DNA of 5,664 nt from Oscillospiraceae bacterium (GTDB lineage: Bacteria; Bacillota_A; Clostridia; Monoglobales; WRBX01). The notes beneath the pieces were generated by a model. That model was not told where the DNA came from. It saw only the letters and a program-made list of their open reading frames with translations, and did not search any database. The stretch covers positions 1-5,664 of the forward strand of contig WRBX01000047.1 in assembly GCA_009784335.1 (NCBI GenBank), given 5' to 3'. The translations under genes were made by a program, and so were the position numbers. Positions 1-5,664 of this stretch are shown here, one piece after another (position 1 is the first letter of the stretch; each line of letters opens with the position of its first letter).

Positions 1-1243
1 GCTTGGCAAGCTTTAGGGCGTTAGTTTCTAAAGTTTTGCGAGTTTTTATAGTTTGTTCGATAACCTGGGGGAGGGTTTCGATATATTCTTCAAGGAGCAT
101 ATTAATTGCTCCTTTTTTCGCGAGATTTTCGGCATTTTTCACTTGGTGGTTGGCGGTTACATTGGGGGATGGGATGATGATAGAGGCCTTGCCTAGCGCG
201 AGGATTTCGAAGAGCACGCCGCCTGCGCGAGTAATGACGATATCGGCGATGGGGAGGAGCTCGGACATATTGTGGATATAGGGAACCAGTTGACAGTTGG
301 CAGTTGACAGTTGACAGGATGAATGTGAATTCTTCGAAGTCGGGACGCCGAGGGCGGCGTCCTCTACAAGGCGGTTGCGTATATCCTCAAAGTAGCGTTC
401 GCCGGTGGCCCAGATTATTTGGTATTTATCGTTGTTTTCGAGGACAAGTTTTTCGATGGCATTATTTAGCACTTCGGCGCCGAGGCTGCCGCCGAAAGCG
501 AGGATTATTGGACGGGAATCGAAGCCGAGTTTTTGGCGGAGGAGGCAGTTAGCAGTTGACAGTTGATAGTTGACAGTTGAATGAGGTTCTTCGAAGTGCG
601 GGCGCCCCACACTTAGAGGTGATGCGCTACCTCTCAAGCAATCCGCTTCCACTAAGTGTGGGGTTGCCCCTACGGGCTGGGGTGTGCGCTTCGAAGGCTG
701 AGAATTAAAGTCGCTGGATTGCTTCGATAGCTCGCAATGACGGAGAAGTTCCGGGCGGATGGGGTTGCCGGTGCAGTGGATAGTTTTGCTAGTTTTTATC
801 TTTGTGTTTTCAAAAGCGCAGGTTATGATATCGGCATATTTTGAGAGCAAGTTGGTTGCAAGACCGGCGACGGAATTTACTTCATGGATTAGAGTCTTTA
901 TGCCGAGTTTATGGGCGGAATAGATAACCGGGAGGGTTACATATCCGCCGGTGCCGATAACAAAATCAGGCTGAAATTCTTTGACAATCTGCTTACTTTG
1001 CTTAATTGAATTTACGATTTTTTTAGGAAGAGAAAGGTTTTTGAATAGATTTTTGCGATTTAGCCCGGAGATTTCGATGAATTTTATATCAAAGCCGCCC
1101 TCGGGAATGCGCCGAGCTTCCATGCCTTTTTGCGTGCCAACAAAGAGAACTTCATTCTCCTTGTTTTCCGCTAATTTATTGGCAATGGCGAGCGCCGGAT
1201 TGATATGCCCGGCCGTTCCGCCGCATGCGAATAGGATTTTCAT
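1..1243 (-). CDS. murG: MurG, lipid II synthase, with two in-frame repeat-derived insertions (3' end outside window)
   Basis: UDP-GlcNAc:undecaprenyl-PP-MurNAc-pentapeptide GlcNAc transferase, a GT-B enzyme that converts lipid I to lipid II on the inner face of the membrane. I translated it by hand: it is open from ATG (1243-1241) to the window edge, 414 residues, with no stop seen. The start is supported by GGAG at 1249-1252, 5 nt upstream. Family motifs in order: GGTAGH (8-13), GTGGYVTLP (97-105), HEVNSVAG (120-127), TGNPIR (158-163), GGSLGA (251-256), YIHNMSELLPIAD (322-334), RAGG (339-342) with acidic E346, and NHQVKNA (365-371). Usual MurG length is about 355-370 aa, so this copy is long although its C terminus is missing. 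The excess is at residues 168-235 (interdomain linker) and 293-319 (a loop before YIHNM), both encoded by repeat DNA. All core motifs flank the inserts intact, so I infer a working enzyme. A 20-codon sample has clearly higher GC3 than murF. Confidence 0.95.
   Translation of the reverse strand, partial: MKILFACGGTAGHINPALAIANKLAENKENEVLFVGTQKGMEARRIPEGGFDIKFIEISGLNRKNLFKNLSLPKKIVNSIKQSKQIVKEFQPDFVIGTGGYVTLPVIYSAHKLGIKTLIHEVNSVAGLATNLLSKYADIITCAFENTKIKTSKTIHCTGNPIRPELLRHCELSKQSSDFNSQPSKRTPQPVGATPHLVEADCLRGSASPLSVGRPHFEEPHSTVNYQLSTANCLLRQKLGFDSRPIILAFGGSLGAEVLNNAIEKLVLENNDKYQIIWATGERYFEDIRNRLVEDAALGVPTSKNSHSSCQLSTANCQLVPYIHNMSELLPIADIVITRAGGVLFEILALGKASIIIPSPNVTANHQVKNAENLAKKGAINMLLEEYIETLPQVIEQTIKTRKTLETNALKLAK
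287..314. repeat. Heptamer array A, CAGTTGA x4, inside murG
   Basis: Four consecutive 7-nt units on the plus strand: CAGTTGA, CAGTTGG, CAGTTGA, CAGTTGA. On the murG sense strand the unit is TCAACTG. It is read as CQLSTANCQL-like peptide at about residues 310-319, just before the conserved YIHNM segment. It lies 18 nt from the hairpin element at 333-367, in the same order as array B and its hairpin. Confidence 0.93.
333..367. repeat. Palindromic element in murG (copy 2)
   Basis: The element begins TTCGAAG (333-339) and ends CTAC (364-367). Its core is a perfect 8-bp inverted repeat, GGACGCCG (343-350) and CGGCGTCC (355-362), with a 4-nt loop. It closely matches the murE element at 5601-5636 and shares its edges with 590-673. 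In murG it encodes about VEDAALGVPTSK (residues 293-304). It lacks one base between TTCGAAGT and CGGG compared with the other two copies, so the TTCGAAG end is read in a different frame here, still without a stop. Confidence 0.85.
546..580. repeat. Heptamer array B, CAGTTGA x5 with variants, inside murG
   Basis: Five 7-nt units: CAGTTAG, CAGTTGA, CAGTTGA, TAGTTGA, CAGTTGA. On the murG sense strand it is read as STVNYQLSTANC (residues 222-233), immediately before the conserved LRQKLGF segment. Same heptamer and same orientation as array A, about 230 bp away. Confidence 0.93.
590..673. repeat. Long palindromic element in murG (copy 1)
   Basis: The edges are TTCGAAG (590-596) and CTAC (670-673). 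A 12-bp perfect inverted repeat, CCCCACACTTAG (605-616) and CTAAGTGTGGGG (652-663), is extended by GGGC (600-603) pairing with GCCC (666-669). The 35-nt loop has its own small stem (GAGGT...ACCTC) and an AAGCAATCC (636-644), which is an inverted copy of GGATTGCTT at 716-724 in the neighbouring repeat. In murG it is translated as about VGATPHLVEA...SVGRPHFEE (residues 191-219). Confidence 0.88.
714..743. repeat. CATTGCGAG-type interspersed repeat inside murG
   Basis: On the murG sense strand this reads CCGTCATTGCGAG, then CTATCGAAGCAATCCAG. From memory, CGTCATTGCGAG...GAAGCAATCC motifs are common interspersed, usually intergenic, repeats in many bacteria. Here it is coding: it supplies RHCELSKQSS (residues 168-177) right after the conserved TGNPIRPELL. 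It marks the amino-terminal edge of the first MurG insertion. Confidence 0.75.
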
Positions 1244-1348: not shown

Positions 1349-1414
1349 GCAATCCACTACGCTGTCGTTATTGCACCTAGCGGTGCAATTAGCACGACGA
1401 TGCTCCGTGATTGC
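1349..1414. repeat. Imperfect long hairpin just upstream of the tRNA
   Basis: Nested inverted repeats: ATTGCACC (1370-1377) and GGTGCAAT (1382-1389), perfect 8 bp with a TAGC loop; GTCGT (1364-1368) with ACGAC (1394-1398); and an outer GCAATC (1349-1354) with GATTGC (1409-1414). It ends 5 nt from the tRNA 5' end. The outer GCAATCC/GATTGC resembles the GGATTGC half of the repeat at 714-743, so it may be a degenerate member of that family. It could also act as leader RNA structure. Confidence 0.65.
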
Positions 1415-1421
1415 TCCTCTT

Positions 1422-1466
1422 CCGAGAAAAATATCGTTCGCTTTGCGAACTAACAATTTTTCTCGG
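1422..1466 (-). terminator. Strong hairpin in the leader; possible terminator or attenuator
   Basis: The outer stem is 11 bp perfect, CCGAGAAAAAT (1422-1432) and ATTTTTCTCGG (1456-1466). The inner stem is GTTCGC (1436-1441) and GCGAAC (1445-1450) with a 3-nt loop. On the minus strand the inner stem is followed by GATATTTTT, so it has A-tract, stem, T-tract layout like a weak intrinsic terminator. It lies about 67 nt after the ftsW stop but also downstream of the predicted promoter, so it could end ftsW transcripts or attenuate the tRNA-murG transcript. The outer pairing competes with the T-tract, so termination is uncertain. Confidence 0.4.
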
Positions 1467-1494
1467 TGGGGTGCGATGGGGGACTTTAATATTA

Positions 1495-2674: not shown

Positions 2675-3643
2675 TTATGAGATAAGTGCCAACGCACTAG
2701 TTATTATAGTTATCATAGTGAATGTAAAAACTATCTTCTTCTCACTCCAACCTTTTTTCTCGTAATGATGATGAATTGGAGTCATCAAGAATATTCGTTT
2801 GCCCTTTGTGGCTTTAAAGTAAATCACTTGCATTATCACTGATAATGTTTCAATTAAGTATATGAATCCTACTAGGATAATTATTAGTGGATTTGAAAGG
2901 CAGATTGCAAAAAGAGCAATGATACCGCCGAGGAAAAGCGATCCGGTATCGCCCATAAACACTTTTGCAGGGTGGGTGTTGAATATTAGAAAACCCAGGA
3001 GGGAAGCAACTATTATTATGCCGATAGCGAAGGCACCATATTGATTAGCGATATATGCCAGAGTGGCAAAAGCTAGCACTGCTATGGTAGTTACTGAGGT
3101 TGCAAGGCCATCTAAACCATCGGTTAAATTAACTGCATTGACTGTTGCAAGAATTACAAAAATCATCAGGGGGATGTACCAAATGCCGAGACTTAGCTTA
3201 AAATCGCTGAATGGAATGATTATTTCCGGGGAAATATTTCCCGAAAAATAGAGGAAGCAGATTGTAATAGCTGATACTACGAGCTGCAATCCGAATTTTT
3301 GATATGCTCTAAGGCCTTGATTTTGTTTTAGCACTACCTTAATAAAATCGTCCAAAAATCCGATGGCGCCGAATGCAAAGGCAAAGATGAGTATAGATAA
3401 ATCGCGAATTGTGAACTCAAATAGGTTCAAGGCGAGGGCGATGATGGTTGTCATGGTTATCGAAAAAATGAAGCTGATTCCGCCCATGGTTGGAGTGCCG
3501 CTTTTTTTATTATGCCAAGAAGGGCCGATTTGCAAGATAGCTTGGCCGAATTTTAGTCGCCGCAGGATGGGGATGAGAACGGCGGTAGTGAGAGTGCTGA
3601 TAATAAATGAGATTAGTATGATTAGTATTGATGGAGCAATCAT
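2675..3643 (-). CDS. mraY: MraY, phospho-MurNAc-pentapeptide transferase
   Basis: Transfers phospho-MurNAc-pentapeptide from its UDP carrier to undecaprenyl phosphate, making lipid I in the membrane. Length is 322 aa, usual for Firmicutes and shorter than the roughly 360 aa of E. coli. About ten membrane segments. Motifs: GPSWHNKKSGTPTMGGI (40-56), FLDDFIK (96-102) with the acidic pair, NAVNLTDGLDGL (169-180), HPAKVFMGDTGS (224-235), and MTPIHHHYEKKGWSE (287-301), the His-rich cytoplasmic loop. All family signature residues I can check are present. ATG (3643-3641) overlaps the murF stop as ATGA, with GGAGGG at 3650-3655 inside the murF end, which indicates coupled translation. The next gene is ftsW, not murD. 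Confidence 0.97.
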   Translation of the reverse strand: MIAPSILIILISFIISTLTTAVLIPILRRLKFGQAILQIGPSWHNKKSGTPTMGGISFIFSITMTTIIALALNLFEFTIRDLSILIFAFAFGAIGFLDDFIKVVLKQNQGLRAYQKFGLQLVVSAITICFLYFSGNISPEIIIPFSDFKLSLGIWYIPLMIFVILATVNAVNLTDGLDGLATSVTTIAVLAFATLAYIANQYGAFAIGIIIVASLLGFLIFNTHPAKVFMGDTGSLFLGGIIALFAICLSNPLIIILVGFIYLIETLSVIMQVIYFKATKGKRIFLMTPIHHHYEKKGWSEKKIVFTFTMITIITSALALIS

Positions 3644-4959
3644 AGATTTCCCTCCAATAGTTTTACTAGTTTTTTGAGGCCGATAGCGTTTGATGCTTTT
3701 ATTAGTACCATATCATCTTTTTTTAGGATAGATTTCAAATTGACGAAAAGCTCTTCTATGTTATCATTTTTTGAGATGCTTTCAATGTGTTTATTTGAAG
3801 ATTCGCCGATAGTGAAAATTCCTTTTAGATTAAGGCTATTTGCATATTTGCCGATTTCTTCATGGAATTCTTCATTGAAGTTGCCAAGTTCCAATAAATC
3901 GCCGAGAACTGCATATTTATTACCCTCGGTTTTAAGGTTGCTAAGCATTGCAAGACTTGATAGCATGGAATCTCGATTTGCATTATAACAATCATCAATA
4001 ATTGTGATTCCGTTTTTTTCAATTATATTTTGCCTATCAATTGTTTCAGTAGTTATCATAGTTATTTGTTCGATTATACTTTCGAACGCTATTTCAAGCT
4101 CGATACCAACAGCAATGGCTGCTAAAGCGTTATATATGCTGTGCATCCCATGTAGTTTTAGTTTGGTAGAATGATTTACATCATTAAGCACTAAATCAAA
4201 TTTGATTCCATTTCCATCTTCAATAATATTAATTGCACGCAAAAAAGCTTTTTCATTATGAATGCCAAAAGAGGTGAATTTATGAGGAAATGTGCCATCA
4301 ATACTCCAAAGCATATCATCATCTGCATTTAGTATAATACTGCCATCAGCATCTATAAAATCAAGCAATTCCATTTTTGCCTTGAAAATGTTTTCACGGC
4401 TTCCGAGGTTGCCGATATGTGCTGTGCCGATATTAGTGAAAACAGCGATGGTGGGGCGGATTATCGAGGATATATAACTGATCTCACCGGGATTATTCAT
4501 ACCGGCTTCCAACACGGCAACTTCGGTTGATTTATAGATGTTTAGAATAGAAAGTGGCGCGCCAATATCATTATTTAGATTTCCTTGGGTAGAAACCGTA
4601 TTAAACTGAGCTTTGCTAATCGCGGCAATCATTTCTTTGGTGGAAGTTTTACCATTGGAGCCGGTTATTGCGACAACCGGAATCGAAAATTTACTACGAT
4701 AACTACGGGCAATATCGCCTAATGCTTTTTTGCCGTCATGGCAATCCAGCGCGAAACCTCCCGATTTACTCAAAAATTCTTGAATGAAATTATGGCCATC
4801 AAAATTGTCGCCTTTGATTGGGATATAGAGCGAGGTGGTGGTGGCAGGCTTGCGTGTGTCGATAGTGATATCATCAACAAAATCATTGCAATTGCCTTCG
4901 GCAGCGATGATTTTGCAATCGGTTATGCGCTCTATTTCGCCAATTGCTAGTTTTTCCAT
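3640..4959 (-). CDS. murF: MurF, UDP-MurNAc-tripeptide--D-Ala-D-Ala ligase
   Basis: Cytoplasmic ATP-dependent Mur ligase that adds D-Ala-D-Ala to UDP-MurNAc-tripeptide. Length is 439 aa, normal for the family (about 450). Motifs: DTRK (34-37) in the N-terminal substrate domain; P-loop ITGSNGKTSTKE (98-109); GNLNNDIGAPLSIL (126-139); EAGMNNPGEI (151-160); TNIGTAHIGNLGSRENI (175-191); HGMHSIYNALAA (270-281); DDCYNANRDSM (322-332); GDLLELG (353-359). Two departures: the usual NANP is NANR here (R329; a CGA codon one base from CCA), and the C-terminal KxSR-type motif reads KASN (421-424). Start at ATG 4959-4957 with GAGGGA at 4966-4971, 6 nt upstream, overlapping murE by 13 bp. Sampled codons are strongly AT-ending. 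Confidence 0.96.
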   Translation of the reverse strand: MEKLAIGEIERITDCKIIAAEGNCNDFVDDITIDTRKPATTTSLYIPIKGDNFDGHNFIQEFLSKSGGFALDCHDGKKALGDIARSYRSKFSIPVVAITGSNGKTSTKEMIAAISKAQFNTVSTQGNLNNDIGAPLSILNIYKSTEVAVLEAGMNNPGEISYISSIIRPTIAVFTNIGTAHIGNLGSRENIFKAKMELLDFIDADGSIILNADDDMLWSIDGTFPHKFTSFGIHNEKAFLRAINIIEDGNGIKFDLVLNDVNHSTKLKLHGMHSIYNALAAIAVGIELEIAFESIIEQITMITTETIDRQNIIEKNGITIIDDCYNANRDSMLSSLAMLSNLKTEGNKYAVLGDLLELGNFNEEFHEEIGKYANSLNLKGIFTIGESSNKHIESISKNDNIEELFVNLKSILKKDDMVLIKASNAIGLKKLVKLLEGNL

Positions 4960-5664
4960 AGTATTTCCCTCACTATTTCGTGCTCGTTGAAGCGGATTTT
5001 TTCTTTTCCGATTATTTGATAATCTTCATGGCCTTTGCCGGCCAGAATAATGCAATCATCTTTTTTTGCATTTTCGAGTGCATATTTGATGGCATCATGG
5101 CGACTAGTTATTATAGTTTTTTTGCAAGGGAGCATTCCGACAACAATTTCTTCGATAATTTTTTCAGGATTCTCTGTGCGAGGATTATCGGAAGTTACAA
5201 TGCAAAAATCGGCAAGTGATGCGCAGACTTTGCCCATTATGGGGCGCTTTTTATTATCTCTATTGCCGCCACAGCCGAATAGGATAATAAGGCGGCCTTT
5301 TGTGAATTCACGAGCGGTTTTGAGGATATTTTCCAGGCCATCGGGAGTGTGAGCATAATCAATAATAACTTTGAAATCGCCATCGTGGACGACCTCCATG
5401 CGGCCATTAACGCCTTTGAAATTGGCGAAACCTTCAATAATTTGCTCTTCGGAAAGGCCTAGGGTTTTGCAGATATTATAAGCAATAGCGGCATTTTCCA
5501 GATTGAATTCGCCGACGATGTGGGGAGGTAATGGAAAAACTATGTCTTCTTTCAAAGATGGGCGAACATAGTTAGCCCCTACATTATTGGGGTCATGTCC
5601 TTCGATGTGCGGGACGCCCGAGACGGCGTCCCCTACGAGCAATCTTTCATAGAGTTTTTTGCCC
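4947..5664 (-). CDS. murE: MurE, UDP-MurNAc-tripeptide synthetase, C-terminal part (5' end outside window)
   Basis: ATP-dependent ligase adding the third stem-peptide residue to UDP-MurNAc-L-Ala-D-Glu in the cytoplasm. The frame is open from the window edge (GKKLYER...) to TAG at 4949-4947, 238 residues; a TTG at 5642 is internal, not the start. Visible motifs, numbered in this fragment: GEFNLEN (51-57), GVNGRME (84-90), DYAHTPDGLE (102-111), GCGGNRDNKKRPIMG (130-144), DNPR (159-162) and GKGHEDYQ (209-216). DNPR is the pattern of meso-diaminopimelate-adding MurE, so the peptidoglycan is probably mDAP type. Fragment residues 10-36, in the central domain before the GEFN motif, are largely encoded by two palindromic repeats (5560-5582, 5601-5636). 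The N-terminal and P-loop regions are not in the window. Confidence 0.95.
   Translation of the reverse strand, partial: GKKLYERLLVGDAVSGVPHIEGHDPNNVGANYVRPSLKEDIVFPLPPHIVGEFNLENAAIAYNICKTLGLSEEQIIEGFANFKGVNGRMEVVHDGDFKVIIDYAHTPDGLENILKTAREFTKGRLIILFGCGGNRDNKKRPIMGKVCASLADFCIVTSDNPRTENPEKIIEEIVVGMLPCKKTIITSRHDAIKYALENAKKDDCIILAGKGHEDYQIIGKEKIRFNEHEIVREILWKN
5560..5582. repeat. Small palindromic element in murE
   Basis: GGGC (5560-5563) pairs with GCCC (5575-5578) and AAC (5565-5567) with GTT (5571-5573), leaving one G-A mismatch and a 3-nt loop. It ends in CTAC (5579-5582) like the other elements. On the sense strand GTAGGGGC... is read as VGANYVRP, in the same frame as the VGAT of the long murG element. 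It lacks the TTCGAAG edge, so it may be a shorter or decayed member. Confidence 0.6.
5601..5636. repeat. Palindromic element in murE
   Basis: Edges are TTCGATG (5601-5607) and CTAC (5633-5636). The inverted repeat GGGACGCC (5611-5618) and GGCGTCCC (5625-5632) is 8 bp and perfect, with a 6-nt loop. It is nearly identical to the murG element at 333-367. On the sense strand it is read as VGDAVSGVPHIEG, with no stop. It is 18 nt from the element at 5560-5582. Confidence 0.85.

What the first reader, a model, noticed from the sequence alone, without database searches (positions are those of the whole stretch)
287..743. Essential murG interrupted twice by repeat DNA, yet still fully open
The murG frame runs through two blocks (539-742 and 287-367) that have the character of intergenic repeats, adding about 68 and 27 codons. 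Both fall between conserved blocks, one in the interdomain linker after TGNPIRPELL and one in a loop before YIHNM, and no core motif is lost. The result would be a MurG with about 95 foreign residues that must still make lipid II if it is the only copy.
Basis: partly seen in the sequence, partly recalled or inferred. Interest (0 to 1): 0.8.

Follow-up and report, generated by a model that had tools for sequence, protein, structure and literature searches.

The report
Repeat-DNA peptides inside essential MurG
An uncultured bacterium's cell-wall enzyme MurG carries dozens of extra amino acids spelled by small mobile hairpin repeats that landed in tolerant loops without breaking the reading frame; this kind of event is already known, but it is a striking case in a gene that is normally essential.

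Summary
The murG frame (minus strand, 1243 to 2, cut by the contig end) runs open through two repeat-derived blocks. Site 1 (541-742) is a mosaic: CGTC-type repeat, GTAG-tagged palindrome, TCAACTG heptamers. Site 2 (287-370) is a GTAG palindrome plus heptamers. Of 189 homologues measurable at site 1, 185 have a linker of 22-27 residues; only the window (87) and its closest relatives (43, 43, 59) are longer. Net gain is about 61 residues at site 1; at site 2, a variable loop, 9-28. AlphaFold2 gives a confident MurG fold, insert 1 disordered, insert 2 less certain. The closest relatives carry other repeat-type peptides at the same sites: an old or recurrent landing place. The GTAG palindromes fit the published GTAG-REP superfamily, thought to be moved by RAYT transposases. 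Such elements are high-copy in 4 of 16 related genomes, lie in frame inside RAYT genes of two, and one genome has an in-frame pair in acetolactate synthase. In-frame REP/RPE insertions are in print, so this is a new member of a known kind. The own genome was not available: copy number and function are untested.

The parts
2..1243 (-). murG, 414 aa, 3' end cut by the contig end
   Evidence: TIGR01133 225.4 bits (cut-off 250.25; inserts and missing C-terminus), PF03033 and PF04101 over cut-off; best structural matches are solved MurGs 1nlm, 1f0k, 3s2u, 7d1i
541..742 (-). insert 1, in the linker between the two domains (about residues 168-235)
   Evidence: linker 87 aa against 22-27 in 185 of 189 measurable homologues; pLDDT below 50 at residues 188-226; GC 0.54 against 0.46 for the rest of murG
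715..742 (-). CGTC-type repeat, CGTC..ATTGC..GCAAT..CCA, read RHCELSKQSS
   Evidence: pattern TCATTGCGAGN{4,30}GAAGCAATCC: 40 copies in G008, 4 in G051, 1 in G078 (3 of 148 genomes), reversed-pattern controls 0; tag CGTC or TGTC in 19 of 19 distinct copies among held loci, window included; a Novosphingobium plasmid matches 32 bases here at 93.9% (E 4e-3)
587..673 (-). GTAG-tagged palindrome with long loop and CCCGCACTTCGAAGAA tail, read VGATPH...VGRPHFEE
   Evidence: DNA hairpin z -3.22, 1 of 200 shuffles as stable
544..580 (-). TCAACTG heptamer array 1, read STVNYQLSTAN
287..370 (-). insert 2, in the variable loop before YIHNM
   Evidence: loop 66 aa against 33-58 in 179 of 185 measurable homologues; residue blocks 291-300 and 301-310 have pLDDT 78 and 54
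330..367 (-). GTAG-type palindrome (GTAGAGGACGCCGCCCTCGGCGTCCCG) with ACTTCGAAGAA tail, read VEDAALGVPTSKN
   Evidence: differs at one base from elements in L086, L096 and L098 over GTAG..CCC; DNA hairpin z -3.63
287..317 (-). TCAACTG heptamer array 2, read CQLSTANCQL
5598..5636 (-). GTAG palindrome in the cut 5' part of murE, read VGDAVSGVPHIEG
   Evidence: hairpin not significant alone (z -1.58, 17 of 200 shuffles as stable)
5560..5582 (-). second GTAG palindrome in murE, read VGANYVRP
   Evidence: z -2.56, 4 of 200
4947..5663 (-). murE, N-terminal part outside the window
   Evidence: TIGR01085 258.1 bits (cut-off 257.3); the model aligns only from residue 45 of the fragment
3640..4959 (-). 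murF; no GTAGRGGM on its coding strand
   Evidence: TIGR01143 343.3 bits
2675..3643 (-). mraY; no GTAGRGGM on its coding strand
   Evidence: TIGR00445 300.9 bits
1533..2660 (-). ftsW; no GTAGRGGM on its coding strand, one on the other strand at 1884
   Evidence: TIGR02614 397.2 bits
1269..1343 (-). tRNA-Arg (anticodon ccg) between ftsW and murG

Best explanation
The murG gene of an uncultured Clostridia-like bacterium has taken up small non-autonomous mobile repeats in frame at two places where the protein tolerates extra length. Shown: each site holds a GTAG-tagged palindrome followed by a heptamer array, and site 1 also starts with a CGTC-type repeat; the strand and frame used have no stop; the GT-B core is intact in the model; close relatives carry repeat-type peptides at the same sites. 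Inferred: GTAG palindromes are REP elements copied and inserted by a RAYT (single-strand DNA HUH/Y1 transposase) acting in trans; heptamers grow by slippage; insertions in other frames or in the core are lost by selection; the surviving peptides are translated as flexible loops and MurG still makes lipid II. The inserts are tolerated passengers, not a new function.
For: Four of four GTAGRGGM sites on the window's coding strand lie in murG or murE and are read in one frame (V-G or V-E); 200 shuffles average 0.04 (one more site, at 1884 on the other strand in ftsW). Linker statistics. Ordered core, disordered insert 1. High copy in relatives: G022 150 (reversed-pattern control 7), G089 147 (55), G181 44 (5), G014 24 (1), in 16 hand-picked genomes, the other 12 not above control. 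VGDGVLDVP in relative P0003 is the exact translation of GTAG elements in G022 (L157), G181 (L096) and a viral contig (L086). A 171-aa RAYT-like ORF in G022 (L214) holds two such elements in frame, one on each side of its PNHVH motif, and G014 RAYT-like ORFs also hold elements in frame (L213, L217, L187). G181 carries an in-frame inverted GTAG pair in a full-length IlvB (700 bits, cut-off 538), absent from the 4 relative sequences recovered. PMC3733652 (section 15) reports GTAG and CGTC REPs in coding regions, twice in one ORF, and clusters encoding 43-82 aa.
Against: The own genome is not held, so copy number and a RAYT there are unseen. The tail version GTAGGGGN{8,38}CCGCANNTCGAAG was in 0 of 391 genomes, and a slightly different form of it in 0 of 6. 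RAYT-model matches in G022, G014 and G089 are below the curated cut-off; only G115's pass it, and G115 is not enriched in GTAG elements. G181 is enriched but its one weak match scores far better as a Y1 (IS200-like) transposase. No element was found by the G089 RAYT or by one of G022's; of 7 of the 8 G115 matches scanned, 6 have none and 1 a chance-looking one. The site-1 palindrome has a long loop and a bulged base. In stretches fetched around known elements, few lie inside ORFs of 120 aa or more (3 of 45 in G022, 4 of 17 in G181, 4 of 17 in G014), several of these doubtful ORFs.
Confidence: 0.85

Rival explanations
1. The segments are native lineage-specific linkers that only resemble repeats and now serve a function such as membrane or partner binding.
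For: The closest relatives P0002/P0004 and P0003 also have extra residues at site 1.
Against: The relatives' segments differ from each other and match repeat translations; DNA-level repeat matches and hairpins; insert 1 predicted disordered; a word-based search with insert 1 listed only itself at E up to 0.1 among 21 candidates.
Confidence: 0.07
2. This murG is a decaying or spare copy and another murG does the work.
For: The score is below the family cut-off (225.4 against 250.25) and no genome is held.
Against: It sits in a mur/fts cluster, keeps 77 of 80 strongly conserved columns and an open frame to the contig end; 6 of 6 related genomes have exactly one match over the cut-off.
Confidence: 0.04
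3. The inserts are an assembly artefact of repeat-rich metagenome data.
For: Single contig; repeats are where short-read assemblies fail.
Against: Frame and flanks stay intact at both sites; P0002 and P0004, listed from different sources (lgn, jgi), carry the same insert peptides, though they could stem from one sample; P0003 has different repeats at site 1.
Confidence: 0.03
4. The inserts are removed after transcription (RNA processing or ribosome bypassing of the hairpin), so the protein is of normal length.
For: Strong hairpin in insert 1 (z -3.93).
Against: The frame is open, so nothing needs removing; only tRNA passed Rfam's gathering thresholds in the window. Splicing or bypass signals were not otherwise sought.
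Confidence: 0.01

Closest known systems
GTAG-tagged REP elements moved by RAYTs (PMC3733652; PMC6006769)
   Same: GTAG tag at the foot of a GC-rich stem; high copy in some relatives; RAYT-like ORFs of G022 and G014 hold such elements in frame, as PMC6006769 section 13 describes for subclass 2.4; in-frame intragenic copies, double insertions and long clusters are in print
   Different: Here in a Clostridia-like bacterium (Firmicutes and Clostridi have 0 occurrences in the main text of PMC3733652; its figures and extra files were not seen), in murG, and followed at both sites by TTCGAAG and a heptamer array
Rickettsia palindromic elements (RPE)
   Same: In-frame insertion of palindromic repeats into conserved genes; an insert-bearing gmk product is reported translated and active (PMC2229807, passages); orthologues share insertion loci (PMC3767692, passages)
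   Different: RPEs are Rickettsia-specific and 105-146 bp; RPE sequences were not compared here
CGTC-tagged repeats (PMC3733652)
   Same: CGTC tag, AT at the start of the stem, CCA after it
   Different: Only about five pairs, hairpin not better than shuffles (z 0.62)
Heptamer repeats such as TAACTGA in Beggiatoaceae (PMC4679880)
   Same: 7-base tandem units that stay open on one strand; one set lies at the very end of a MurG (section 15)
   Different: Unit is TCAACTG; here internal and joined to GTAG palindromes

Membership tests
GTAG-REP | GTAG tag at one end, at the foot of the stem | tested here: met
   GTAG at 5636, 5582, 673 and 367 (minus strand); in insert 2 one base at the foot is A instead of G, and in insert 1 the foot is bulged
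GTAG-REP | short palindrome with stem of 5-13 bp and loop of 2-20 bases | tested here: inconclusive
   met by insert 2 (8 bp, loop 4) and the first murE element (8 bp, loop 6); insert 1 has a 12-bp stem but a far longer loop
GTAG-REP | many copies in the genome | tested here: inconclusive
   own genome not held; 4 copies in the 5.7-kb window; 24-150 copies in 4 of 16 related genomes
GTAG-REP | dimers, mostly in opposite orientation | tested here: inconclusive
   not seen in murG; in relatives, neighbours under 150 bp are inverted in 8 of 8 pairs in G181, 7 of 8 in G022, but 1 of 9 in G014
GTAG-REP | association with a RAYT gene | tested here: inconclusive
   none seen in the window; elements in or by RAYT-like ORFs in G022 (L214) and G014, not in G181, G089 or G115
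CGTC-REP | CGTC tag, AT in first stem positions, CCA-like tail | tested here: met
   715-742; among 19 distinct copies in held loci the tag is CGTC (13) or TGTC (6), tail CCC (13) or CCA (6)
CGTC-REP | 8-9 bp stem, 4-5 base loop | tested here: not met
   about five pairs, z 0.62, 148 of 200 shuffles fold as well; so not filed as a member
Rickettsia RPE | Rickettsia-specific sequence of 105-146 bp | tested here: not met
   best genome hits are Clostridia MAGs; elements here span about 27-87 bases; RPE sequences themselves were not compared
MurG (TIGR01133) | both GT28 domains and family score | tested here: inconclusive
   both Pfam domains over cut-off; family score 225.4 under 250.25 with inserts and cut end; best structural matches are MurG

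The most novel reading that the evidence does not exclude
A GTAG palindrome, a TTCGAAG tail and a TCAACTG heptamer array travel as one composite mobile unit, and the interdomain linker of MurG is a recurrent landing pad for it (and for a CGTC-type repeat), kept in frame across species-level or deeper divergence in an undescribed Clostridia-like lineage. The order palindrome, tail, heptamers is seen at both murG sites, and the peptide of P0003 reads the same way.
Probability: 0.3. Interest if true: 0.55.

Novelty: new member of a known kind. Interest (0 to 1): 0.4.

Why it matters
It extends in-frame REP insertion to a cell-wall enzyme that is normally essential, in Clostridia-like bacteria, and offers a natural series at one site of one protein, as read from the peptides: none (P0005), CGTC-type only (P0002), GTAG plus heptamers (P0003), all three (window). 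That lets one ask how mobile DNA becomes peptide sequence, how long such peptides persist and whether they cost activity. It also warns that family cut-offs can underrate genuine genes: this MurG scores below the family threshold.

Tried and rejected
Own genome: not held. Insert 1 as a protein region: only itself at E up to 0.1, 21 candidates. MurG in viral contigs: 6 stretches matched a pattern, none a relative. Insert 1 by distant blastn: one Novosphingobium plasmid, over the CGTC-type repeat (my notebook entry 2 wrongly calls it a heptamer match); phages none. CCCGCACTTCGAAGAA in viral contigs: 6 hits, by eye without the palindrome, judged chance. Palindrome-plus-tail pattern: 0 of 6 and 0 of 391 genomes, in two slightly different forms. 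Heptamers: 1 of 391 genomes, G115, 4 matches against 7 of the reversed control, so not informative. Rfam: only the tRNA. Literature search by repeat letters: 20 of 322 papers listed, none looking relevant. Search for murG with repeat insertions: 10 of 114 listed, none on this. Considered and rejected: native linker, pseudogene, assembly error, splicing or bypass (see rivals). My first idea of a Rickettsia-like host was dropped: the best genome hits are Clostridia MAGs.

Full report
What is there. The window is a minus-strand cell-wall cluster: murE (cut), murF, mraY, ftsW, a tRNA-Arg and murG (cut at its 3' end). The murG frame is open from 1243 to base 2, 414 aa. Both GT28 domains are found; the family score is 225.4 bits against a cut-off of 250.25, as one would expect with inserts and a missing C-terminus.

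Size and place of the inserts. I measured two spacers in the 192 MurG homologues listed by two searches. GNxxR to GGSxG is measurable in 189: 185 have 22-27 residues, the window 87, P0003 59, P0002 and P0004 43. GGSxG to YIxxM is measurable in 185: 179 have 33-58, the window 66; the others above 58 are P0002 and P0004 (61), P0107 (64), P0021 (72) and P0009 (80). P0004 is identical to P0002 over its whole length. So site 1 is a clear insertion of about 61 net residues, while site 2 lies in a loop of variable length and gains 9-28. Of 80 columns at least 90% identical in the other 56 sequences of an alignment, the window keeps 77, and none lies in an insert.

Structure. AlphaFold2 with 57 sequences gives mean pLDDT 85.7 and pTM 0.82; residues 188-226 are below 50, blocks 291-300 and 301-310 are 78 and 54, and most other blocks are above 90. 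The best PDB matches are MurG structures (1nlm, 1f0k, 3s2u, 7d1i).

Anatomy. On the coding strand, site 1 reads: a CGTC-type repeat (742-715), a spacer, a GTAG-tagged palindrome with a CCCGCACTTCGAAGAA tail (673-587), and a TCAACTG heptamer array (580-544). Site 2 reads: a GTAG-type palindrome with ACTTCGAAGAA tail (367-330), then a heptamer array (317-287). The cut part of murE holds two more GTAG palindromes. Controls: heptamer match 27 of 28 at both sites against at most 19 in 200 shuffles; the tail motif three times against 0 of 200 shuffles; GTAGRGGM four times on the coding strand against a mean of 0.04. These motifs were drawn from the window, so the tests are after the fact. All four GTAG elements are read in the same frame. 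Insert 1 has no stop in the coding frame and stops in the other five; insert 2 is open in three of six frames. A shuffled insert 1 stays open in 148 of 2000 cases, so openness alone is not remarkable after selection. Hairpins: insert 1 RNA z -3.93, insert 2 DNA z -3.63, but the first murE element z -1.58 and the CGTC-type repeat z 0.62.

The same kinds of repeat elsewhere. GTAGGGGACGCCN{2,12}GGCGTCCC is in 4 viral contigs and 4 of 391 genomes of one class, always with six bases between the fixed parts, controls 0 in those genomes. The looser GTAGGGGN{6,34}GCCCG is enriched over the reversed pattern in 4 of 16 hand-picked genomes (G022 150/7, G089 147/55, G181 44/5, G014 24/1) and not in the other 12. 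The CGTC-type repeat is in 3 of 148 genomes, with 40 copies in G008. Relatives, by peptide only: P0003's site 1 contains VGDGVLDVP, the exact translation of GTAG elements in G022, G181 and a viral contig, and then STVNYQLS, as in the window. P0002 reads HCE...KQSS at site 1 and HCE...DEAIQ at site 2; of 19 distinct DNA copies of the CGTC-type repeat, 12 read DEAI, 3 (the window included) KQS and 4 something else in that frame. P0002 and P0003 are closer to each other (79%) than to the window, so either an old mosaic was partly lost or the sites were hit more than once.

Mover. RAYT-model (NF047646) matches were found in 5 of 8 genomes, over the curated cut-off only in G115. In G022 a 171-aa RAYT-like ORF (L214) holds two GTAG elements in frame, one (VGDGALDVP) before and one, reversed, after its PNHVH motif. 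In G014, ORFs with a PNHxH motif hold elements in frame at L213 and L217, L187 holds an array before its PNHIH motif, and L223 and L220 have elements nearby; background is 4 in 1.55 Mb of other loci. PMC6006769 (section 13) describes such in-frame REPs in RAYT genes of its subclass 2.4. G089, G115 and one G022 match do not show it, and G181 has only an IS200-like match. Mobilisation by a RAYT in the window's own genome is therefore an inference.

A second housekeeping case. G181's IlvB (580-aa frame, 700 bits, cut-off 538) carries an in-frame inverted pair of GTAG elements between its N-terminal and central domains, absent in the 4 sequences my filter recovered of 8 relative loci. A GatA-like ORF in G181 also has elements but looks eroded (235 against 481 bits). 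MurG of G181 and G022 has a normal linker of 26.

Known or new. PMC3733652 (passages, abstract, sections 5, 6, 7 and 15) defines GTAG and CGTC repeats, reports them in coding regions of several species, twice in one ORF and in clusters encoding 43-82 residues, and suggests that insertions in flexible linkers or loops may be neutral. RPEs in Rickettsia are the classical case (PMC2229807, PMC10969869, PMC3767692, passages only). Heptamers at the very end of a Beggiatoaceae MurG are in PMC4679880 (passages and section 15). So the phenomenon is known. I saw no report of REPs inside murG or of the palindrome-tail-heptamer composite in the listings of nine searches, which cover open-licence papers only; several were cut to their top rows.

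Limits. No DNA for the closest relatives, no own genome, no expression data.

Noticed in passing
window 1380-1480: Intergenic stretch between ftsW and the tRNA folds into strong hairpins (z -4.27, 0 of 200 shuffles); may be a terminator or another repeat.
   Followed up: partly
window 5560-5636: murE carries two GTAG palindromes in tandem near its cut end; the insert size cannot be measured without the rest of the gene.
   Followed up: partly
L179 11886-13625 (G181): Acetolactate synthase large subunit with an in-frame inverted pair of GTAG elements between two domains.
   Followed up: yes
L214 1453-1965 (G022); L187 4428-5138, L188 4090-4599, L217 3-740 (G014): RAYT-like transposase ORFs containing GTAG elements in frame, in L187 a whole array.
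   Followed up: partly
P0107, P0021, P0009: Other MurG homologues with extra residues in the site-2 loop; P0107 also has a VGAGLVSAR peptide near its C-terminus that looks like a GTAG element.
   Followed up: no
L087 and L088 (viral contigs): GTAG elements lie within long open frames (710 and 519 aa) on the opposite strand.
   Followed up: no
L176 4313-5491 (G181): GatA-like ORF with GTAG elements and a low family score; may be decaying or a divergent paralogue.
   Followed up: partly
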